64,000 nucleotides of DNA from an uncultured SAR86 cluster bacterium. GTDB lineage: Bacteria > Pseudomonadota > Gammaproteobacteria > Magnimaribacterales > Magnimaribacteraceae. The stretch lies in contig CACLEZ010000001.1 in NCBI GenBank assembly GCA_902606175.1, positions 1 to 64,000 on the forward strand. Reading direction: 5' to 3'. This document shows, in pieces, positions 12,174 to 50,071 of this stretch; within the stretch, counting starts at the first letter, position 1, and the number at the start of each line of letters is the position of its first letter. Under the pieces are notes generated by a model. It worked only from the letters and a program-made list of their open reading frames with translations. It had not been told where the DNA came from and did not search any database. The translations under genes were made by a program, and so were the position numbers.

Positions 12174-13726
<1,553 letters not shown>

Positions 13727-14013
13727 AAATAAAATCGTTTTTTTGTAGGCGTTCACACGAATTACTTATTTATCTTTAATCTCTCTTGAGATTTCGGATG
13801 CGTTTTTTAACATTTTTATAAGTTCAATCAAGTCATATCAAGAGCATTTATGTTCTAGATATGCAAATTAATTATTCATTAAAGGTTTTATTATTCTTTT
13901 AATCCGAAACCTTATTTGAATAACTGCAAAGTAATTTGGCGTTTTTGTGTTTTTTAAACACATATAGTAGATAGAAATTCTTGAAAATATCATTAAGTTA
14001 ATTGATGTAATAT
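13727..14013 (+). other. 16S-23S internal transcribed spacer without tRNA genes
   Basis: 287 bases, AT-rich. It holds the 3' arm of the 16S processing stem (13749-13770) and the 5' arm of the 23S stem (from 14002). I looked for a T-arm GTTCRANNC with a matching acceptor stem and found none, so neither tRNA-Ile/tRNA-Ala nor tRNA-Glu, usual in gammaproteobacterial spacers, is present. Confidence 0.8.
13749..13770 (+). other. 3' arm of the 16S rRNA processing stem
   Basis: Reverse complement of 12055-12076 with two differences, 23 bases after the 16S 3' end. Pairs with the leader to release pre-16S. Confidence 0.8.

Positions 14014-14020
<7 letters not shown>
14002..14020 (+). other. 5' arm of the 23S rRNA processing stem
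   Basis: Nineteen bases that pair with 16921-16939 (one G-U/mismatch position), crossing the 23S 5' end at 14014. Standard RNase III stem for 23S. Confidence 0.8.
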
Positions 14021-16920
<2,900 letters not shown>

Positions 16921-16928
<8 letters not shown>

Positions 16929-16939
16929 TATTACATCAA
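16921..16939 (+). other. 3' arm of the 23S rRNA processing stem
   Basis: Pairs with 14002-14020, bringing the two ends of 23S together. Confidence 0.8.
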
Positions 16940-16992
16940 GTAATTTCTTGATATAGCCAAGTTGCTAAATAGATTGAATTTATAAGTTTATG

Positions 16993-17107
16993 TCTGATGA
17001 CCATAGCAAGAGTGAACCACCTGATACCTTTTCGAACTCAGAAGTGAAACCTTTTAGCGCCGATGGTAGTGTGGTTGCGACCATGTGAGAGTAGGACATC
17101 GTCAGAC
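16993..17107 (+). rRNA. rrf: 5S ribosomal RNA
   Basis: About 115 bases. The terminal stem pairs TCTGATGA (16993-17000) with TCGTCAGA (17099-17106). The internal blocks CGAACTCAGAAGTGAAAC and CGCCGATGGTAGTGTGG are the conserved 5S loops. It follows 23S by about 64 bases with no tRNA between or after. Confidence 0.95.
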
Positions 17108-18035: not shown

Positions 18036-18770
18036 ATGGATATAAGACAGATAGTTATGGTCTCAGCTCTAAGAGATCCAATTGTTAATAATTTATGTGA
18101 GTTATTTGAATGCGAAGTAGCTTTTAATGATCCTGGGGTTGGCCATTTTGGTCTTGAAAACGCAGTTATTCCTATAGGAACAGATTTTTTAGAGGTAGTT
18201 AGTCCGAAAGAAGAAAATACAACAGCCGGAAGGTTCTTGGAAAAGAGAAATGGAGATGGCGGTTATATGATTATCATTCAAGTAGACGACTTTAAGGATT
18301 CAAAGAGCTTAGTAGAGAAAAATAATATAGGAGTTGTTTGGGAAACAGATCTGCCCGAAGCAAAAGCTATACATCTTCATCCTAAACAAATGGGTGGGGC
18401 AATACTTTCTCTTGACTGGATGAATCCTAAGGAAAGTTGGAAATGGGCTGGACCGGAGTGGACAAGTCATATATCTGGACCTATAACAGGGGTAGATGGA
18501 GTCCAAATTCAGTCTGATAATCCTGAGACTATGTTTCAAGACTGGCTTGCAGTTTTAGGCAATCCCAAATCAAGTAAAGAAAAGTTAAAAATATTTTTAG
18601 ATGATACCTGGTTAGAATTTATTTTGGATAGTGATGGAAGAGGTCCTGGAATCTCTGCTTTTAGTCTTAAGACAAAAGATCACGATATTATTAATAAAAG
18701 AGCTTTGGAGTTGGGCTTAATAAGTGACGGCCTAATTTGTATAGGCGGAATAACATTCTATCTAGTATGA
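18036..18770 (+). CDS. Glyoxalase-fold (VOC superfamily) protein
   Basis: A 244-aa protein with two beta-alpha-beta-beta-beta modules: residues about 1-125 (FECEVAFNDPGVGHFGLENAV through GGAILSLDWMNP) and 140-244 (GPITGVDGVQIQSDNPETMF onward). GHFGLEN and LHPKQMGGAILSLD recall the metal-binding positions of VOC enzymes, but ligands cannot be fixed by eye and the second half looks degenerate. No substrate can be assigned. Its stop overlaps the start of the following lipidated protease by 4 bases (ATGA), so the two are coupled, without an obvious functional link. A purine-rich GGGGAA about 20 bases upstream is a weak ribosome site. Confidence 0.7.
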   Translation: MDIRQIVMVSALRDPIVNNLCELFECEVAFNDPGVGHFGLENAVIPIGTDFLEVVSPKEENTTAGRFLEKRNGDGGYMIIIQVDDFKDSKSLVEKNNIGVVWETDLPEAKAIHLHPKQMGGAILSLDWMNPKESWKWAGPEWTSHISGPITGVDGVQIQSDNPETMFQDWLAVLGNPKSSKEKLKIFLDDTWLEFILDSDGRGPGISAFSLKTKDHDIINKRALELGLISDGLICIGGITFYLV

Positions 18771-21238
18771 AGAAAAGTATTTCATATTTCTTTATGATTT
18801 TTCTCTTGTCTTGCGGGGGTGGGGGTGGAGGTAGTTCGAGCTCTACGATTCCTCAAACTTCTAGTAGTAGTGAAAGTTCTCAAAGTACAAATACGTCTTC
18901 CTCTTCAACCTCAACAACAACAACTTCTACTAGTTCTTATAATCCTAATCTACCTACGTCAGGTGCAATTTCTCTAACCGGCAATTTTGATGCTGACAAA
19001 ATTACCTATGAAGACTCCTCAGAATATAGTGACCAATACGGTCTAGGTTTAATCAAGGCTTCGTCTGCTTATGCGAGAGGAGCTACAGGAAGAGGTGCAA
19101 TTATAGGTATCATGGATTCCGGTGTTGATACTTCTCACCAAGAGTTAAATAGCTCCAATAAACTTTTACCGGAAAGTTATTTAGTCTATCAAGATAGATC
19201 ACCAACAACTGATGAAAAACGACATGGTTCTCATGTTGCAGGTATCGCCTTAGGTGAAAGGGATGGATCTGGAATTCATGGAGTTGCATTTGATGCTCAG
19301 TTATTTTTTATCTCAATAGAGTTAGGAACTGCAGGTGACACTTACGATCCTGCAACCATTGATTCATCAGTAGATTACACTGGAATCGATAATAGCTGGT
19401 CTCAACTTGAAGCTGAGTTTGTTTCCAAGGATGTAACAGTTGTTAATGGAAGTTTTGGTTATCAAGGCAATATAAATGATTATACCGAAGAGAATATAAG
19501 GCAAGCATTTCCTAAGACTATTGAGGTATTAGCACAGTTTCAAAAAGCAGATGAAAATAAAACAATTTTCGTTTGGGCGGCTGGCAATGGAGGCGGCTAT
19601 GCAGATCAAGGAGTTGATTATTCCAGTCCTGAGGTATTCGGAGGTCTGGCATATCTACTGCCTGAACTAAGAGGAAATACTGCTGCTGTTGTTTCAGTCG
19701 ATGAGGATGGCTCTATAAGTAGCTTTTCTAATAGATGCGGTGTTGCACAAGATTATTGTTTAGCAGCTCCTGGAAATTCTATCTTAAGCGTATATGCTCA
19801 AGACGAACCCACAATTGATTCCTATGGAAGGGCCAGTGGTACATCAATGGCAGCACCTCATGTTTCAGGTGGAATAGCTCTTCTTGCTGATTATTTTGAT
19901 GGGCAGTTAGGTAATACAGAAATACTACAAAGACTTTTTACAACAGCAAATAAATCAGGTATCTACTCTGACTCTGAAATTTATGGTCAAGGCCTAATGG
20001 ATTTAGATGCTGCTACAAAACCAGTAGGCACTGCAATGATTGCTACGGCTGGTGTGTCTCTTTCTGCCTTAAAACTCAAGGAGGAGGGAAGTTATATAGG
20101 AATAGTAGGCCCAGCATTTGGTAATATTATCTCTGAAAAATTAAGTCAGTTATCTTATGTAGTTTTTGATGAATTAGGCGCTCCTTTCAAGAGAACTTTC
20201 AATGATCGAATACTTAATAACATACCTAATATAAATTGGCTGACATCTTTTCAACTCAATCCAAGTAAAAGGGTTCATGAGAGATCAATTGCAATGAAAA
20301 ATGGTTTCATTCAACTAGGAATTAATGATGGTTACTCTCACGAACATAATCTAATATCGTTGTGGGCTGATACTGAGAATAAATTAGCTTATTTTTCATT
20401 TGAACAAAGTCTTACTCAAAATAGTAAATTATTTTTTGGCAGCGGAACAAGTCCTAACACCTATCTTTCATCAAAAAAAGGCTCCAAATATAAAGGAATC
20501 CCTTTTCTAGAGTATTCATCTGATGGTTCTTATATTGGTATGGATATCGGTATGTCTTCAAAAAAATCAATCCTTTTTTCTTTTTTTCAAGGCTCACATC
20601 TAGATGGTAAAAGATTCGTAAATCAAATAGGAGATAGCAAAGGTATTCTTTTAGAGGTAAGAGATTATAAAGAAATGTCTACAATCTCATATCAAGTAGG
20701 GCTCACAACAAACAATTCAAATTTATTAGGTATATCTTCAGAAGGAAGTTTTGGACAGGCTGACAAATCTCTAACTTCTTTCATTGGATTGGACTTCTTA
20801 AATAGAGTGAAAGATACTTTTTTTAAAAGTTCATTTCATATAGGTATGACTTCTTCAGCTTTCAATCAAATGGGAATGATAGAAGATATAGAGGATACCT
20901 ACTTTTCGTCTTTTGATATAGGAATCTACAGAGATAACATATTCACTAACTCAGATTCATTAGGGCTGGAAGTTTATCAACCTCTGAGATCAGAACGAGC
21001 TAATATTAACTTTTCTCTTCCTGTTGGCAGGACTCAGGATAGACAGATAGTTTTTCAAAACCTTAACCTAGATTTGACTCCTCCAGGAAGACAAATAAAT
21101 TCTCAACTAGTTTATAACACGAAAAGTCGCAATCTCTCTTTCTATGGCAAGTTAGGTTTAGTGTCTAACGAGTTTCATCAAAAAGAAAGCAAAGTTAAAC
21201 CATACTTTCAGATCGATATTGAATTTAGCTTAGAATAA
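18767..21238 (+). CDS. Lipidated subtilisin-like (S8) serine protease with probable outer-membrane C-terminal domain
   Basis: The signal peptide ends in lipobox FLLSC, followed by six Gly and a Ser/Thr-rich linker of about 45 residues. The catalytic domain has Asp117 (IMDSGVDTS), His153 (RHGSHVAGIALG), oxyanion Asn274 (AAGNGGG) and Ser360 (GTSMAAPHVSGG). The remaining roughly 400 residues alternate polar and hydrophobic positions and end in YFQIDIEFSLE, resembling an autotransporter-type beta-barrel, although the last residue is not the typical Phe. NalP of Neisseria and SphB1 of Bordetella have this same lipobox-S8-barrel layout. Start at 18767 gives the lipobox signal; a longer TTG start at 18737 would spoil it. 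Tail-to-tail overlap of 9 bases with the next gene. Confidence 0.82.
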   Translation: MKKSISYFFMIFLLSCGGGGGGSSSSTIPQTSSSSESSQSTNTSSSSTSTTTTSTSSYNPNLPTSGAISLTGNFDADKITYEDSSEYSDQYGLGLIKASSAYARGATGRGAIIGIMDSGVDTSHQELNSSNKLLPESYLVYQDRSPTTDEKRHGSHVAGIALGERDGSGIHGVAFDAQLFFISIELGTAGDTYDPATIDSSVDYTGIDNSWSQLEAEFVSKDVTVVNGSFGYQGNINDYTEENIRQAFPKTIEVLAQFQKADENKTIFVWAAGNGGGYADQGVDYSSPEVFGGLAYLLPELRGNTAAVVSVDEDGSISSFSNRCGVAQDYCLAAPGNSILSVYAQDEPTIDSYGRASGTSMAAPHVSGGIALLADYFDGQLGNTEILQRLFTTANKSGIYSDSEIYGQGLMDLDAATKPVGTAMIATAGVSLSALKLKEEGSYIGIVGPAFGNIISEKLSQLSYVVFDELGAPFKRTFNDRILNNIPNINWLTSFQLNPSKRVHERSIAMKNGFIQLGINDGYSHEHNLISLWADTENKLAYFSFEQSLTQNSKLFFGSGTSPNTYLSSKKGSKYKGIPFLEYSSDGSYIGMDIGMSSKKSILFSFFQGSHLDGKRFVNQIGDSKGILLEVRDYKEMSTISYQVGLTTNNSNLLGISSEGSFGQADKSLTSFIGLDFLNRVKDTFFKSSFHIGMTSSAFNQMGMIEDIEDTYFSSFDIGIYRDNIFTNSDSLGLEVYQPLRSERANINFSLPVGRTQDRQIVFQNLNLDLTPPGRQINSQLVYNTKSRNLSFYGKLGLVSNEFHQKESKVKPYFQIDIEFSLE

Positions 21239-40494: not shown

Positions 40495-41859
40495 TTAAAA
40501 TTTATTTATATTTGGTTTTATACTTTTTAGTCCTAAGTAAAAAATCTCTTTTATTTTATTTAAATCATCATTTGTTTCAGCTTCAAATCTTAATACTAGA
40601 TATGGTGAAGTATTAGATGGCCTCAGTAATCCCCAGCCTTTCTCAAATTCAACTCTTATACCATCTATGCTAACTATTTTAGCGTCATTAAAATTAGAAT
40701 TTTCTATAAATTTTTTTACTATTTGAAATTTCTCTTCGTCTGCAGCAGGTATATTTATCTCTGGAGTTGAAAGCATATTAGGAACAGTCACAAATGGATC
40801 ATCTCCTTCTGAACTTGCAATTATTTCTAGCATTCTGGCACCAGCATATATCCCATCATCAAATCCTGGCCATCTATCATTAAAGAAAATATGACCACTC
40901 ATTTCACCACCGAGTAAAGCATTTGTTTCCCTTATTTTCTGTTTTATAAAAGTATGACCAGTCTTGCATATCAAAGGCTTGCCTTTGAGCTTTTCAATTT
41001 CATCTGAAAGTAGCTTAGAGCACTTAACATCAAAAACAATATTAGCATTGGGGCTAGACTGAATGACTTGTCTCGAAAACATTATCATCTGTCTATCAGG
41101 GAAGATCATTTCTCCTTTGGGAGAAATTACACCTAATCTGTCAGCATCTCCATCAAAAGCTAGCCCCACTACTGAATCATTTTCTTTTACATTTTTAATA
41201 AGATCTTCCATATTTTCTAATTTAGATGGATCCGGGTGATGATTTGGGAATGAGCCATCTGGTTCTCCATATAGCTCTATTACATCGCAACCTAATCTTT
41301 CATATACCTCTTTTGCCACAACACCGGCTGCACCATTTCCACAATCTATTGAGATACTCAGATTTTTATTTAGTTTAATGCTTCCCAATATCCGACTTAT
41401 ATAAGTCTCCTTAATATCTTCTTTGTTTGATATACCTTTTCCTTTTCTAAAATTTTCTTCTAAGATTCTTTGTTTAAGATGCAATATTTCTTCGCTAGTT
41501 GTCGAATGGTTATTAAAAACAATCTTGAATCCATTGTAATTTCCAGGATTATGACTACCAGTTATTACAACTCCACTTGAAGAGTTCAGTTCATAAGTCG
41601 AATGATAGAACATTGGACTTGTAACTATGCCAATATCAATCACATTACAGCCAGTAGATATTATTCCTGAAGAGAGCCAATCAAAGATTTGAGGACTTGA
41701 GAGTCTTGCATCTCTTCCAACAATGAATTCTTGGACATTTCTATCAATTGCTTCAGAACCCAAGGCTTTGCCGAGGCTTTGAACTACTTCTTCGGTAAGA
41801 TCTTCATAGGCTATGCCTCTAATATCATTAGCCCTAAATATGTTTTGGTTTAACTGCAC
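40495..41859 (-). CDS. algC: Phosphomannomutase/phosphoglucomutase
   Basis: Alpha-D-phosphohexomutase making mannose-1-P and glucose-1-P for LPS and other glycans. The four signature segments appear: IFRANDIRGIAYEDL, the phosphoserine loop GVVITGSHNPGNYNGFK, the metal loop FDGDADRLG, and sugar-binding GGEMSGHIFF; the C-terminal phosphate-binding RPSNTSPYLVLRFEA closes it. 454 aa. The start is GTG at 41859, as no in-frame ATG precedes the conserved sequence; no clear ribosome site. First gene of the unit algC-argB-slmA. Confidence 0.92.
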   Translation of the reverse strand: MQLNQNIFRANDIRGIAYEDLTEEVVQSLGKALGSEAIDRNVQEFIVGRDARLSSPQIFDWLSSGIISTGCNVIDIGIVTSPMFYHSTYELNSSSGVVITGSHNPGNYNGFKIVFNNHSTTSEEILHLKQRILEENFRKGKGISNKEDIKETYISRILGSIKLNKNLSISIDCGNGAAGVVAKEVYERLGCDVIELYGEPDGSFPNHHPDPSKLENMEDLIKNVKENDSVVGLAFDGDADRLGVISPKGEMIFPDRQMIMFSRQVIQSSPNANIVFDVKCSKLLSDEIEKLKGKPLICKTGHTFIKQKIRETNALLGGEMSGHIFFNDRWPGFDDGIYAGARMLEIIASSEGDDPFVTVPNMLSTPEINIPAADEEKFQIVKKFIENSNFNDAKIVSIDGIRVEFEKGWGLLRPSNTSPYLVLRFEAETNDDLNKIKEIFYLGLKSIKPNINKF

Positions 41860-43893: not shown

Positions 43894-44994
43894 ATGAAAA
43901 AGAAGTTAGCATTACTTTTATATAGATATTTTCCCTACGGCGGATTGCAAAAGGACTTTCTTGGAATATCTAAAGAGTTAGTTGCAAGAGGGCACATTGT
44001 TAAGGTTTACACAAGAAGTTGGGAAGGTGATATTCCAGAAAATATAGATGTAGTTGAGACAGGAGAAAAAGGACTATCAAATTACTCAAAAAATAAGAAT
44101 TATGTTTCTGAGGTGATGAAATCTCTTAAAAATTTCATGCCCGATATTGTATTTGGTTTTAATAAAATGCCTGGCTTAGATTTATATTTTGCTGCAGATA
44201 CTTGTTTTGCTAAACAGTCTCTAACTAAGAATTCTATGCAAAGATTTACTAGAAGATTTAAACAATCTATGGCCTTTGAGGAGGAAGTATTTTCTGTAAG
44301 CTCTAAGTCAAGAATCTTTCTTCTAAATGAAAAACAATCTCAAGATTTTCAAGATTTCTATTCCACTCAACATGAAAGATTAACAATAATCCCTCCGGGA
44401 ATAGAAAAGAACTGGATTGACCAAGAATCTATAAATATTCATGAACTCCTAAACATTCCCCGCAACGAAAAGATCATTCTTTTTGTTGGATCAGATTTTT
44501 CTAGGAAAGGCTTAGATAGAGCAATATTTGGGATGAGTTACCTTTCAGAGCACAACATCTCTGCAACATTATTAGTTATAGGCGACGATAGCAAAGAACC
44601 ATATAAAAAAATTATTAAAGAACATTCTCTTGAAAATAAAGTGATTTTCTTAGGTCCAAGAAAGGATGTGGCCTCTTTTATGAAGTCGTCTCATTTATTA
44701 GTTCATCCTGCCAGAGAAGAAGCTGCTGGTAATATCATAATTGAAGCTCTAGTTTCAGGATTACCTTCTTTAATTTCAGCTGAAGTTGGTTTTTCAGGCG
44801 AAGTTTTAAAATATGAGTCCGGAATAGTGGTAACAGGAAACTTTACACAAGAAAAATTTAATACTCTCTTAGAGGAGAATATATCAGACGTAAAATTAAG
44901 TTCAGTAAAAGAGAGAATAAAACCTTTAGCTAACGATAATTATTTTTACTCAAGATTTAGCTTTATAGCAGATTACATTGAAAGAGAATTTTAA
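43894..44994 (+). CDS. waaG: LPS core glucosyltransferase I (WaaG-type)
   Basis: GT4 glycosyltransferase attaching the first outer-core hexose to heptose II. The N-terminal LLYRYFPYGGLQKDFLGISKEL is the WaaG signature; the donor site includes FVGSDFSRKGLDRAI and the E-x7-E motif EAAGNIIIE in HPAREEAAG. 366 aa from the ATG at 43894; a longer frame begins at 43873 inside waaF but lacks a family match. It shares one base with the following kinase gene (44994). Confidence 0.92.
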   Translation: MKKKLALLLYRYFPYGGLQKDFLGISKELVARGHIVKVYTRSWEGDIPENIDVVETGEKGLSNYSKNKNYVSEVMKSLKNFMPDIVFGFNKMPGLDLYFAADTCFAKQSLTKNSMQRFTRRFKQSMAFEEEVFSVSSKSRIFLLNEKQSQDFQDFYSTQHERLTIIPPGIEKNWIDQESINIHELLNIPRNEKIILFVGSDFSRKGLDRAIFGMSYLSEHNISATLLVIGDDSKEPYKKIIKEHSLENKVIFLGPRKDVASFMKSSHLLVHPAREEAAGNIIIEALVSGLPSLISAEVGFSGEVLKYESGIVVTGNFTQEKFNTLLEENISDVKLSSVKERIKPLANDNYFYSRFSFIADYIEREF

Positions 44995-46490
44995 TGAAAG
45001 AAGTTACTTTTTTAGACAATTATCTTAATCAACTCTTTTATAAGAAAGATACCTTTAACGAACTACAAAATGTAGAAGGTAAAGTTTTTAGGGAATATGA
45101 AAACAGAATTACAAAGCAATTTGAGGCTCAAAATAAAAAATATTTTATTAAATTCCACGGGCCAGTTGGATGGAGGGAGATATTTAAAAATCTCTTTCAA
45201 ATAAAGACTCCGGTTATTGGAGCTCAAAGAGAGTATGAAGCTTTAAATCACTTATCAAAAAACAATATCAATTGCCCACAAATAAAAGGTTTTGGAAAGA
45301 AAGGCATAAATCCAGCAAACTCTTCTTCTTTTATAATCACAGAAGAGTTATACGGCACATTATCTCTTGAAGAATTCTTTTTAAAAAACCTCCACAAAAA
45401 TCTTAGCTTTAATCAGAAATGTAATTTAATAAAAGCTTCTGCTTCCATAATTCGTAAAATGCACTCTTCCGGCTTAAACCATAGAGATTTATACCTTTGT
45501 CATTTACACGTAAAAGAAGACATAGATTTCAATAATATAAAGATTTATTTGATTGATTTGCATAGAGCGCAAATACGCTCATCTGTGCCACTCAGGTGGA
45601 CTATCAAAGATCTCGGAGGATTTTTTCACTCCGCTATTCAGTTCAACTTTACAGAAAGAGACTTCTATAGGTTCCTAATGTCATATTTTGATTGCTCTTT
45701 AGGAGATCTTTTCGGTAGGCATCAACATATTATAGGGAAGATATTAGACCGTGCATTTTCTATGTATTTGAAACCAAATCTAAAAAAATTCTCTCGAAAT
45801 GACTCATTAATAGATTCAAAGGAAAGTGAATTTGATATACATAGCTTCAATTCTGGTAAGTTATTCATTGAGAAGAATCTTGATCTTAATCAGTTCACTC
45901 CATTTCTTAATGATGAAAGTATATTAATAAGTGAAGGTGAAGTGATCAAAAACGAAAAAGGACATCTGATAGTTAAAATCAAAATAATGGATCGATATTT
46001 TTTTGTAAAGAAATATAGGATTAAGAATATTTTTCATGGGATATCTAGATTGATTAAAAAAACAAGAGCTCTTAATTCATGGCTGATGATTTATTGGCTC
46101 AACGCTGTTGGCATAAGAACTGCAAAGCCAATATTACTATATGAAGAAAATGGAGTGTTGGGAGCTAGGTCATCTTTTTTAATAACGGAAGAGATAGAAG
46201 GGAAACGTTTAGACGAAGCTATAGATCAAAACACTAATTTAGATCTGGTGGTTGCAAGAATAGAGAGTTTCTTCAAGAGAATGAATTGGATTAAAGTTAG
46301 TCATGGAGATGCAAAAACCTCCAATTTTTTCATTAATCAGAAAGGATTAGTAACATTCGATCTAGACTCTTCTAGAAGAAGAAAATTAAATTTTTTCCAT
46401 AATAAGGCGATTTCTAAAGACAAGAATAGGATTTTGAAGAGTTTAGAAAAAAATGATCAGGCATATTTAAAACTCGCTAGAAGATTATGA
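44994..46490 (+). CDS. waaP: Fusion of two LPS core kinases (WaaP plus a second kinase domain)
   Basis: 498 aa, almost twice the size of WaaP (about 265 aa). Residues 1-260 match WaaP, the heptose I kinase: GKVFREYENR, the Lys-containing YFIKFHGPVGW, catalytic H163-R-D165 in GLNHRDLYLCH and metal D188 in LIDLHRAQIR. Residues about 310-498 are a second kinase-like domain with RYFFVKKYRIK, SFLITEEIEGK, catalytic H437-G-D439 in VSHGDAKTSNF and FDLD at 455-458. In Pseudomonas separate kinase genes (wapP/wapQ type) follow waaP, so this looks like a fusion of neighbours. Both active sites look complete. It lies in the waaF-waaG-waaP order. Confidence 0.85.
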   Translation: MKEVTFLDNYLNQLFYKKDTFNELQNVEGKVFREYENRITKQFEAQNKKYFIKFHGPVGWREIFKNLFQIKTPVIGAQREYEALNHLSKNNINCPQIKGFGKKGINPANSSSFIITEELYGTLSLEEFFLKNLHKNLSFNQKCNLIKASASIIRKMHSSGLNHRDLYLCHLHVKEDIDFNNIKIYLIDLHRAQIRSSVPLRWTIKDLGGFFHSAIQFNFTERDFYRFLMSYFDCSLGDLFGRHQHIIGKILDRAFSMYLKPNLKKFSRNDSLIDSKESEFDIHSFNSGKLFIEKNLDLNQFTPFLNDESILISEGEVIKNEKGHLIVKIKIMDRYFFVKKYRIKNIFHGISRLIKKTRALNSWLMIYWLNAVGIRTAKPILLYEENGVLGARSSFLITEEIEGKRLDEAIDQNTNLDLVVARIESFFKRMNWIKVSHGDAKTSNFFINQKGLVTFDLDSSRRRKLNFFHNKAISKDKNRILKSLEKNDQAYLKLARRL

Positions 46491-46500
46491 GAATGTTAAT

Positions 46501-47745
46501 TTGAAAATTGGATTACTAAGCTATCGAAGCCATCCTTATTCTGGCGGGCAAGGAATTTATGTAAAGCACTTAAGTAAAGCCTTGAGCTATTTGGGTCATG
46601 AGGTTTCTGTACTATCTGGTCAACCTTATCCCGAATTAGATGATTCCATTGAATTGATCAAGATACCAAGTTTAGGAATGTTTGAGACTGGAGATAGAAT
46701 GAAGTTATTTAGTCTAAAACTTCTGTTTAAGCCTTTAGATCTCTATGAATGGTTGACTGTAATGACTGGTGGTTTTCCAGAACCTTATACCTATGGAAGA
46801 AGAGTTTATAAATACTTGAAAAGTAATAAAAAGGATTTCGATGTTATCTTAGATAATCAATCTTTATGCGGGTCTCTGTTGAAGATTCAGGAAATCTTGC
46901 CTCTTGCTGTGACTATTCATCATCCAATTACCAAAGATCATAAGCTTGAAATGGAAAATGCTGCAAATTGGAAAGAAAAACTTTCTTCGATGAGATGGCA
47001 TAATTTTCTTCCTATGCAAAAGAGAGTAGCTCCTAAATTGAACAAAATAATATGTGTGAGTGGTCCTTCAAAAGAAGATATTATTAAAGAATTCCTGGTG
47101 GATGACAAAAAGATCGAAGTAATCCTAAATGGAATTGATATTGATAAGTTTGTGCCTGGCTCCAAAGATTTAGTTCAAGTAAATAAAATTATTACTACTG
47201 CTAGTGCAGATATACCTTTAAAGGGTCTAAAGTATTTGATCCTTGCTTTACCAAAGATTTTAAAGTCTTTTCCCAAAACAACACTAACAGTAATAGGTAA
47301 GTCGCCTTCAAACAGCGAGGTAAGTAAAATTATTGATAAGCTAGATCTTAATAATATTATCAGCTTTAGATCAGGGATTAGTGAAGATGAAATTGTTCAT
47401 TTGTATCATTCATCCGAAATAGCTGTTATCCCGTCATTGTACGAAGGCTTTGGTTTTGGGGCAGGGGAGGCCATGGCGTGTGGAGTTCCCTTGATAAGCA
47501 CTCATTCAGGTGGACTAAAAGAAGTTGTTGGGGAAAGGGCTGTTGAGATAATGCCCTCCTCTGCAGAAGAAATAGAGAAGGCAGTGATAAACTTATTTAA
47601 TAATCGAGAAAAGATGAAAGAACTTTCCGAAAAGGGCAGGCAAAGAATGGAGAGTAAGTTTGACTGGAAACTCGCAGCGAGTTCATATGAATCTTCATTT
47701 AAAGATGTAATAAAAGCTTTTAACAATGAACACCATAAAGTATAG
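46501..47745 (+). CDS. GT4-family glycosyltransferase
   Basis: 414-aa retaining glycosyltransferase, GT-B fold. N-terminal acceptor domain starts GLLSYRSHPYSGGQGIYVKHLS; the C-terminal donor domain has NGIDIDKF and the E-x7-E site in SLYEGFGFGAGEAMACGVP. Start is TTG at 46501. The acceptor is unknown. It is the first of a tight set with a methyltransferase (20-base overlap) and a toroid protein, following the LPS core genes, so it may modify core or another surface glycolipid. Confidence 0.85.
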   Translation: MKIGLLSYRSHPYSGGQGIYVKHLSKALSYLGHEVSVLSGQPYPELDDSIELIKIPSLGMFETGDRMKLFSLKLLFKPLDLYEWLTVMTGGFPEPYTYGRRVYKYLKSNKKDFDVILDNQSLCGSLLKIQEILPLAVTIHHPITKDHKLEMENAANWKEKLSSMRWHNFLPMQKRVAPKLNKIICVSGPSKEDIIKEFLVDDKKIEVILNGIDIDKFVPGSKDLVQVNKIITTASADIPLKGLKYLILALPKILKSFPKTTLTVIGKSPSNSEVSKIIDKLDLNNIISFRSGISEDEIVHLYHSSEIAVIPSLYEGFGFGAGEAMACGVPLISTHSGGLKEVVGERAVEIMPSSAEEIEKAVINLFNNREKMKELSEKGRQRMESKFDWKLAASSYESSFKDVIKAFNNEHHKV

Positions 47746-48433
47746 AAAACTTAAATTAGAAACTGGTCAACTTCTTCTAGATATGGGTTGTGGCGAAGGT
47801 AGGCATTCTATAGGTGCTCTCCTGGAGACTCCAGCTAATGTTATTGGTTTAGACTTATCCTTCGAAGACTTAAATACTGCTAAATCGAGATTAAATGATT
47901 TCGAACTTTCAGGTTGCGATACTTTTTGTGCTTTTGGAGTAGGCAATATTAAAAATATTCCTATTGAGAATTCTTCTCTTGATGCCGTTGTGTGCAGCGA
48001 GGTTTTAGAGCATGTAGATTCCCCCAAAGAGTCGATTCAAGAATTAGTCAGAGTACTTAAACCAGGAGGGATAATGGCATTAAGTGTTCCGAGATATCTA
48101 CCTGAGTTAATTTGTTGGAAATTGAGCAAAGAATATTCAAAAACTCCCGGAGGGCACGTAAGAATCTTTAAACATAGTCAATTGAGAGATCTAGCAGAAA
48201 ATAATGGTCTTCAATATCAATCTTTTCATTGGGCACATGGTTTGCATTCTCCTTACTGGTGGTTGCAATGTCTTTTTTGGAATACAAGAGAAACATCATA
48301 TGTAATAAAGCTATATCATAAATTATTAGTCTGGGATTTGATGAAAAGACCTCTATTTACAAGATTATTAGAAATGATTCTTCAACCATTGATAGGTAAA
48401 AGTCTTGTAATGTATTTTAGGAAACCTGTTTAA
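47726..48433 (+). CDS. Class I SAM-dependent methyltransferase
   Basis: 235-aa Rossmann-fold methyltransferase of the Methyltransf_11 type. SAM motif LLDMGCGEGRHSIG at residues 18-31, acidic ribose-binding LDLSFEDLNTA, and motif EVLEHVDSPKE with the LKPGGIMALSVP strand later. The C-terminal about 85 residues (HWAHGLHSPYWWLQCLFWN) are rich in Trp/Leu and may contact a membrane or lipid substrate. It overlaps the glycosyltransferase by 20 bases and abuts the toroid protein, so all three should work together. The substrate is unknown; N-terminal MNTIKYRKLKLE lacks similarity to ubiquinone-pathway UbiE. Confidence 0.85.
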   Translation: MNTIKYRKLKLETGQLLLDMGCGEGRHSIGALLETPANVIGLDLSFEDLNTAKSRLNDFELSGCDTFCAFGVGNIKNIPIENSSLDAVVCSEVLEHVDSPKESIQELVRVLKPGGIMALSVPRYLPELICWKLSKEYSKTPGGHVRIFKHSQLRDLAENNGLQYQSFHWAHGLHSPYWWLQCLFWNTRETSYVIKLYHKLLVWDLMKRPLFTRLLEMILQPLIGKSLVMYFRKPV

Positions 48434-49444
48434 ATGGCAAGCTCAAACTTAGAGTTTTATAGAAACTCGATAGACTATATTTTATCTGTTCAAAATAAAG
48501 ATGGTTCTATCCCATGGGAGCTGGATGAGAAATTAGATCCTTGGGACCATATAGAAGCTGCTATGGGTCTCTCTATAGCTGGAAAGAAAGATGAGGCCGA
48601 AAAAGCTTTTTTATGGCTAAGTGATAGTCAACTTCAAGATGGCTCTTGGTATGCAGAATATCTGAACTCCATACCCATGACTCAAAGAAAAGAAACAAAC
48701 TTTTCTGCTTATATTGGCACAGGCCTGTGGCACTATTATTTAATATTCAAAGATAAAGATTTTATAGAAAATATGTTGCCGACTTTATCTAAAGCCTTAG
48801 ATTTTGTTCTGTCTATGCAAACAGAAAATGGAGATATTTATTGGGCTTGTGAAGAAGGTAAGCAAATTTTAGATGATTCTTTAATTACTGGCAGTAGTTC
48901 TATTTATAAGAGTTTGGAGTGCACGGCTGCAATTTTCAATCTTTTTGATAAACCTATTGAATCTATTATTGTTTCAATGGAAAAATTAAAAAGCTCCATT
49001 AATAATAATCCTGAAAGATATGATAGAAGCTGGGAAAGCAAATCCCGATACAGTATGGATTGGTATTATCCCATTTTGTGCGGCATTTATGATCAAGAGA
49101 AGAGTATTGAGCAAGTAAATGCTAAGTGGTCTGAATTTATTGTTGAAGGCATGGGGTGTAAGTGCGTTAAAGAAGAGCCATGGGTCACAGTTGCAGAAAG
49201 TTCGGAATTAGTAACTGCTCTAGTAAGAGTTGGGCTTACTAGTCAAGCTGAGACTCTTTTTAATTTTTTGCATCAATGGCGGGACAAAAAAGATGGTTTG
49301 TATTGGACTGGGTATGTTTATCCTGACAAAAAGTTTTGGCCAGTTGAGAAACCAACTTGGACAGCAGGAGCTGTTTTGTTAGCAGCCGACGCCTTATATG
49401 GTTTTACTAATGGATCAGAATTATTTTCTAAATCATGGGTTTGA
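48434..49444 (+). CDS. Alpha/alpha-toroid (prenyltransferase/squalene cyclase-like) protein, function unknown
   Basis: 336-aa protein with repeats resembling the QW motif of terpenoid cyclases: VQNKDGSIPW near residue 19, SQLQDGSWYAEY near 68, MQTENGDIYW near 137, and WTAGAVLLAADALY at the end. This gives the (alpha/alpha)6-barrel fold. No DxDD/DxDDTA acid motif is visible, so a cyclase reaction is doubtful. It starts one base after the methyltransferase stop and shares the operon with GT4 and methyltransferase. A polyprenyl- or glycan-linked substrate is plausible, no more. Confidence 0.7.
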   Translation: MASSNLEFYRNSIDYILSVQNKDGSIPWELDEKLDPWDHIEAAMGLSIAGKKDEAEKAFLWLSDSQLQDGSWYAEYLNSIPMTQRKETNFSAYIGTGLWHYYLIFKDKDFIENMLPTLSKALDFVLSMQTENGDIYWACEEGKQILDDSLITGSSSIYKSLECTAAIFNLFDKPIESIIVSMEKLKSSINNNPERYDRSWESKSRYSMDWYYPILCGIYDQEKSIEQVNAKWSEFIVEGMGCKCVKEEPWVTVAESSELVTALVRVGLTSQAETLFNFLHQWRDKKDGLYWTGYVYPDKKFWPVEKPTWTAGAVLLAADALYGFTNGSELFSKSWV

Positions 49445-49450
49445 TATTAT

Positions 49451-50071
49451 TCAGTCAACTTTTTTTAAAAGACTTAAAGTTTTAATAAATTCAATTTCTT
49501 GATAGTTCCCACTTTCCAATGCCTTCAAATAAATATTATAAGGAGGTCTTCCGCCATCTTCAGGATTAGGAAAAACATCATGGATTGCTAGCAATCCTCC
49601 TAGATTTAATCTTTTTGACCATAAGCTATAGTCATTCTGAGCTGCTTCTTCGCTATGACCACCATCAATAAAAACCATATTGAAATTTATTTTTAGATCT
49701 TCATGGGCTTCTTTTGAAGACGAGACTATAGGTATTACAAAATTTTCTAGACTGGAGGATCTGATGGTTTCCAAGAAATATGGAAGCGTGTCTATTCCAT
49801 TTCCAGATTCATTTATTAGATCTGGATCAAAAAATTCTTGCCCGGGCTGCTGCTCTTCAGACCCTTTATGATGATCAACAGAATAGAGCTTTTGATTATT
49901 TTCTTTGACAGCTGAGCCTATATATACAGCAGATTTACCACAATAACTTCCAATTTCAATAGCATCACCATTTTTAGTAAATTCTTTTGCGTAAGAATAT
50001 AGAGCTTCCCCCTCTTGCGGATCTAAGAAACCTTTTATTCTGTTTATATCTATTTGAAGATTAATTGCCAT
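49451..50071 (-). CDS. Methyltransf_24-type SAM-dependent methyltransferase
   Basis: 206-aa protein: AIEIGSYCGKSAVYIGSA at the SAM-binding start, LYSVDHHKGSEEQ as motif II, VFIDGGHSEEAAQNDYSLW, and GGLLAIHDVFPNPEDGG, all characteristic of the sugar/macrolide O-methyltransferase-like group. It faces the toroid gene with a 6-base gap and is divergent from hldE, so it has its own promoter but may belong to the same pathway. Acceptor unknown. Confidence 0.82.
   Translation of the reverse strand: MAINLQIDINRIKGFLDPQEGEALYSYAKEFTKNGDAIEIGSYCGKSAVYIGSAVKENNQKLYSVDHHKGSEEQQPGQEFFDPDLINESGNGIDTLPYFLETIRSSSLENFVIPIVSSSKEAHEDLKINFNMVFIDGGHSEEAAQNDYSLWSKRLNLGGLLAIHDVFPNPEDGGRPPYNIYLKALESGNYQEIEFIKTLSLLKKVD

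What the first reader, a model, noticed from the sequence alone, without database searches (positions are those of the whole stretch)
46501..50071. Compact glycosyltransferase-methyltransferase-toroid module with a facing second methyltransferase
GT4, Methyltransf_11 and a QW-repeat toroid overlap or abut on one strand, and a Methyltransf_24 protein faces them 6 bases away. The set sits between LPS core genes, but none of the four has an obvious role in core assembly. The toroid lacks the cyclase acid motif, so it may bind a polyprenyl or methylated glycan. I do not recognise a described system with this composition.
Basis: inference. Interest (0 to 1): 0.6.

Follow-up and report, generated by a model that had tools for sequence, protein, structure and literature searches.

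The report
Mycobacterial-type methylmannose polysaccharide cluster in SAR86
The four genes are the known set that mycobacteria use to make and recycle a methylated sugar chain thought to carry fatty acids; here the set sits in an ocean bacterium (SAR86), where nearly every genome of the lineage keeps it although the fatty-acid enzyme it was thought to serve is absent.

Summary
The reading 'no described system' is wrong. [quoted passage not shown] Three have solved mycobacterial counterparts: toroid = MmpH (7qsj, E 1e-80; model TM 0.92), GT4 = ManT (7qsg, E 5e-88), MT24 = MeT1 (6g7d/6g80/6h40, E 1e-50). Catalytic residues are kept. The toroid is an endomannosidase, not a cyclase-like binder. 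What remains of interest is the host: the marine SAR86 order. MmpH is in 131/151 SAR86 genomes and MeT1 in 130/151 (each 39/40 of those at least 90% complete), at one conserved site, against 4/396 other Pseudomonadota sampled. Relatives also occur in Halieaceae, Cellvibrionaceae, Microbulbifer, Alphaproteobacteria and haloarchaea. SAR86 has no FAS-I (0/101), the enzyme MMP is proposed to regulate, so what MMP does becomes testable in bacteria without FAS-I. Known pathway, new and nearly universal host lineage; MMP production is inferred, not shown.

The parts
46501..47745 (+). manT: GT4 alpha-(1->4)-mannosyltransferase homologue
   Evidence: 7qsg E 4.7e-88, 39% identity; G15, H142, K240, E313, G314, F315, E321 conserved
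47726..48433 (+). pmeT3: putative 3-O-methyltransferase (Methyltransf_11)
   Evidence: Position in the cluster and 41% identity with the Nonomuraea gene in the same slot; no solved close relative
48434..49444 (+). mmpH: MMP alpha-endomannosidase, (alpha/alpha)6 toroid
   Evidence: 7qsj E 1.2e-80, 41% identity, 11 of 11 active-site residues identical; AlphaFold model pLDDT 91, TM 0.92 to 7qsj
49451..50071 (-). meT1: MMP 1-O-methyltransferase (Methyltransf_24), convergent
   Evidence: 6g7d/6g80/6h40 E 1.1e-50, the only PDB match at E <= 0.01; 40% identity, 35 positions at least 95% conserved over 95 homologues
40495..41859 (-). Phosphomannomutase/phosphoglucomutase homologue; likely part of GDP-mannose supply, not part of the cluster itself
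   Evidence: NCBIfam PgmG E 1.8e-126, below its cut-off; the only PGM_PMM_I match found in this incomplete genome; conserved neighbour across SAR86

Best explanation
[quoted passage not shown] ManT adds alpha-(1->4)-mannose from GDP-mannose to a short methylmannose primer. pMeT3 methylates O3 of the added units. MmpH cuts mature chains internally into two primers. MeT1 caps the newly freed reducing end with a methyl group. The chain thus seeds its own replication. Shown here: homology, conserved catalytic residues, MmpH fold, gene order, joint inheritance, GDP-mannose supply genes. Inferred: that MMP is made, that it is cytoplasmic, that it binds fatty acyl chains. As FAS-I is absent, I think the most likely role is an acyl-chain carrier or buffer for other lipid metabolism, perhaps helping growth in cold water (about 0.4). 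The confidence below is for the pathway, not for this role.
For: PDB matches to all three structurally solved enzymes of the cluster; active-site residues kept; model matches 7qsj at 1.5 A; same four genes in the same order in Nonomuraea, gamma- and alphaproteobacteria and in 17 SAR86 loci of four families; SAR86 is one clade in all four gene trees; ManC-type GMP/PMI protein and a phosphomannomutase in the genome; biochemistry of MmpH, ManT and MeT1 in PMC9883506.
Against: No activity or product has been measured in any proteobacterium. pMeT3 is only putative even in mycobacteria (PMC9883506). ManT D293, a proposed guanine contact, is E here and variable elsewhere, so the donor is not proven. 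Some divergent SAR86 MmpH have H for N101/F102. The proposed FAS-I partner is missing.
Confidence: 0.9

Rival explanations
1. The four genes build or decorate LPS: a methylated mannose stretch on the core or O-antigen, like the 3-O-methylmannose O-polysaccharide of Oligotropha carboxidovorans.
For: In the window's family the cluster lies between WaaP-like and HldE genes; in most other SAR86 loci it is next to LpxL- and WaaA-like genes; 3-O-methylmannose O-antigens exist (PMC9883506 introduction).
Against: In three other SAR86 families the heptose-core genes are mostly missing at this place while all four genes stay. MeT1 in mycobacteria methylates a free reducing end, which a lipid-linked glycan would not have (PMC9883506). 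No transporter or O-antigen ligase gene is among the conserved neighbours listed.
Confidence: 0.06
2. A relative of the MMP pathway that makes a different methylated alpha-glycan (other sugar, chain length or added acyl groups).
For: About 40% identity to the mycobacterial enzymes; ManT D293 not conserved; divergent MmpH subsite residues in some SAR86; Streptomyces griseus makes an acetylated form (PMC9883506).
Against: Catalytic and most subsite residues are the same and GDP-mannose supply genes are present.
Confidence: 0.15
3. The toroid is a terpene-cyclase-like binder of a polyprenyl or hopanoid ligand.
For: Weak SQHop_cyclase_C hit, below cut-off.
Against: Best sequence and structure match is a hydrolase whose catalytic acid and base are kept; the next fold matches are glycosidases, phosphorylases and sugar epimerases.
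Confidence: 0.02

Closest known systems
MMP gene cluster of nontuberculous mycobacteria (meT1, mmpH, pmeT3, manT; PMC9883506)
   Same: All four genes; conserved catalytic residues of MmpH and ManT; MmpH fold; same order and orientation as in the actinomycete Nonomuraea.
   Different: About 40% identity; host is a FAS-I-less Gram-negative marine bacterium; nearly universal in the order instead of scattered; lies in an LPS/ilvE neighbourhood.
6-O-methylglucose lipopolysaccharide (MGLP) pathway of mycobacteria
   Same: Also a polymethylated alpha-(1->4) polysaccharide proposed to bind acyl chains (PMC4555173).
   Different: Other sugar and other enzymes; not searched for in SAR86.
GH15 and GH125 glycosidases
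   Same: (alpha/alpha)6 toroid with the catalytic base placed as in MmpH (PMC9883506); weak TIGR01577 hit.
   Different: Little sequence similarity; exo-acting; their -1 subsite Arg-Asp pair is absent from MmpH (PMC9883506).

Membership tests
MMP biosynthetic cluster | Four linked genes: ManT, pMeT3, MmpH, MeT1 | tested here: met
MMP biosynthetic cluster | MmpH catalytic residues D47, D50, E262 and subsite residues | tested here: met
   All 11 identical in the window protein; E262 106/106, D47 105/106 with one gap
MMP biosynthetic cluster | ManT catalytic residues H142, K240, E313, E321 | tested here: met
   Identical in the window protein
MMP biosynthetic cluster | ManT guanine-contact residue D293 | tested here: inconclusive
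   E in the window, variable among homologues; a proposed contact only
MMP biosynthetic cluster | MmpH fold, (alpha/alpha)6 barrel | tested here: met
   AlphaFold pLDDT 91, Foldseek top hit 7qsj, TM 0.92, rmsd 1.5 A
MMP biosynthetic cluster | GDP-mannose supply | tested here: met
   ManC-type GMP/PMI protein (331.9 bits against a cut-off of 372.95) and a phosphomannomutase homologue; supportive, enzymes not assayed
MMP biosynthetic cluster | Production of alpha-(1->4)-3-O-methylmannose 11-14-mers | not testable with these tools
   Needs extraction and MS/NMR
MMP as FAS-I partner | FAS-I in the producer | tested here: not met
   PF08354 in 0 of 101 SAR86 genomes; control rings in Corynebacterium glutamicum
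Terpene cyclase / squalene-hopene cyclase | Sequence over the family cut-off | tested here: not met
   16.2 against 26.1 bits in Pfam; 19.5 against 322.7 bits in NCBIfam

The most novel reading that the evidence does not exclude
MMP is a core, near-universal polymer of the marine SAR86 order with a function that does not involve FAS-I (acyl-chain buffering or cold growth), so the polymer is not tied to the mycobacterial lipid envelope.
Probability: 0.6. Interest if true: 0.7.

Novelty: new member of a known kind. Interest (0 to 1): 0.55.

Why it matters
MMP has been studied as an actinobacterial polymer that interacts with FAS-I, and its function in vivo is recorded as unproven (PMC4555173). 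Finding its cluster in nearly every genome of SAR86, marine bacteria with genomes of 0.7-1.8 Mb and no FAS-I, says the polymer is worth its cost there for another reason. Cultured carriers (Microbulbifer, Pseudohalioglobus, Simiduia) allow a direct knockout test. It also names four genes that carry only generic family labels here, and predicts 3-O-methylmannose oligosaccharides in surface-ocean organic matter.

Tried and rejected
LPS-core role: disfavoured because the cluster persists where heptose-core genes are missing. Terpene-cyclase or polyprenyl binding: rejected. Phage or plasmid carriage: no relatives in viral contigs or phages, and the single 'plasmid' hit is an 11.9-Mb Nonomuraea replicon. 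Weak second matches in some SAR86 genomes (L026-L029) have stops in frame and were dismissed. Gammaproteobacterial matches at E 1e-4 to 1e-5 cover short stretches of much longer proteins and were not counted as MmpH. The 2019 PNAS paper on MeT1 is not in the library. 'of' does not take locus ids, so an Actinomycetota-wide survey could not be run. No Rfam family in 42-54 kb; promoter and terminator scans gave no more than chance.

Full report
Observation. Pfam confirms GT4, Methyltransf_11 and Methyltransf_24; the toroid has no family hit over cut-off.

Identity. A sequence search of solved structures settles it. The toroid matches MmpH, the methylmannose polysaccharide hydrolase of M. hassiacum (7qsj, E 1.2e-80 over residues 10-331). 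The facing methyltransferase has a single PDB match, 6g7d/6g80/6h40 (E 1.1e-50), which I take to be the MeT1 structures (own knowledge; the record is titled only 'Methyltransferase domain protein'). The glycosyltransferase matches 7qsg (E 4.7e-88; next best 7e-18), which I take to be the ManT structure of PMC9883506: the record is titled D-inositol 3-phosphate glycosyltransferase, but its code neighbours that of 7qsj and all ten residues numbered in the paper fall on the named letters. PMC9883506 describes a four-gene cluster of these functions: MeT1, MmpH, a putative 3-O-methyltransferase and ManT. The fourth gene here, Methyltransf_11, occupies the pMeT3 slot; that assignment rests on position and on 41% identity with the Nonomuraea gene.

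Active sites. MmpH residues D47, W49, D50, N101, F102, T163, M215, Y219, E262, E265 and W315 are all identical in the window protein. Over 106 homologues the catalytic base E262 is invariant and D47 is D in 105 with one gap; D50 is D or N. ManT G15, H142, K240, E313, G314, F315 and E321 are conserved; D293, a proposed base contact, is not. The AlphaFold model of the toroid (pLDDT 91) has 7qsj as its top match (TM 0.92, rmsd 1.5 A), far ahead of the rest.

Host. The window's family contains genomes whose contigs equal in number and length those of named SAR86 single-cell genomes (for example G012:C14 of 30017 bases and CACAGI010000014.1, AG-343-J11), so the window is SAR86. MmpH is in 131 of 151 genomes of the order and MeT1 in 130 of 151; each is in 39 of 40 genomes that are at least 90% complete. 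In a draw from the whole phylum, 4 of 396 other genomes have MmpH. In the class, 7 of 274 others have a full-length match, three of them in the same order. In the class of Natrinema gari (haloarchaea) it is 11 of 145. The named collection scan found at least 586 relatives, the best 80 being mostly SAR86, Halieaceae, Cellvibrionaceae, Spongiibacteraceae, Microbulbifer and Alphaproteobacteria; ranking was by similarity to the window, so Actinomycetota are under-represented there.

Gene order. manT-pmeT3-mmpH with convergent meT1 recurs in nearly all loci long enough to show it, including Nonomuraea (Actinomycetota) and 17 loci from SAR86 families beyond the window's own. In SAR86 the cluster lies downstream of ilvE and upstream of LpxL- and WaaA-like genes. 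In the window's family WaaF, WaaP, HldE and HldD genes are interspersed; in the other SAR86 families these are mostly missing at this place while all four MMP genes stay. That is the main evidence that the cluster is not an LPS-core module; whether those genes lie elsewhere in the genomes was not tested. SAR86 forms one clade in each of the four gene trees (SH-aLRT 99-100), as expected if the set has been inherited together since the base of the order. The trees are quick, unrooted and hold few Actinomycetota, so they do not say who gave the cluster to whom.

Mechanism. By homology, ManT elongates short methylmannosides with mannose, pMeT3 methylates O3, MmpH cuts mature chains internally to give primers, and MeT1 caps the new reducing end: the self-recycling scheme of PMC9883506. 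GDP-mannose can be supplied by a GMP/PMI-type ManC beside a pgi-like gene and a phosphomannomutase homologue about 5 kb upstream of the cluster. None of these activities has been measured in a proteobacterium, as far as I could find.

Function. Polymethylated polysaccharides bind long acyl chains in vitro and modulate FAS-I, but evidence in vivo is recorded as missing (PMC4555173; PMC2674218). An M. smegmatis mmpH mutant lost MMP and grew slower at 15 C but not at 37 or 45 C (PMC9883506). No FAS-I was found in SAR86 (0 of 101; positive control). Hence FAS-I regulation cannot be the reason for its retention there; acyl-chain buffering or cold growth are the candidates I favour, both inferred.

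Novelty. The pathway is known. The main text of PMC9883506 does not contain the words proteobacteria or Gram-negative and its methods survey actinobacterial genomes; no paper in the searched library holds both SAR86 and methylmannose. That library lacks most subscription papers, including the 2019 MeT1 paper, so priority is not proven. I file it as a new member of a known kind with a surprising host range.

Noticed in passing
window 44994-46490 +: A 498-aa protein with two kinase-like parts: an RfaP/WaaP-like N-terminal half (residues 6-261) and a second half with weak KdkA/Bud32-like matches (about residues 338-489).
   Followed up: no
window 12174-17107 +: Complete rRNA operon (16S, 23S, 5S); ARAGORN finds no tRNA in it or anywhere in the window.
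   Followed up: partly
L157-L173 (other SAR86 families): The WaaF/WaaP/HldE/HldD genes seen around the cluster in the window's family are mostly absent from this place in other SAR86 families, which hints at a reduced LPS core there; not searched genome-wide.
   Followed up: partly
L120 (Natrinema gari), L177-L186: Haloarchaea carry an MmpH homologue (11 of 145 genomes). The Natrinema locus has ManT and pMeT3 homologues but no MeT1 within 7 kb: an archaeal variant.
   Followed up: partly
L064, L084, L091, L095, L111, L112: Some Cellvibrionaceae and other bacterial loci have manT-pmeT3-mmpH without an adjacent meT1.
   Followed up: no
L042 5838-7589: In one genome of the window's family two ORFs of about 202 and 385 codons lie between mmpH and meT1; not identified.
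   Followed up: no
window 18737-21238 +: Large ORF that by eye looks like a subtilisin-like autotransporter with a serine/threonine-rich N-terminus.
   Followed up: no
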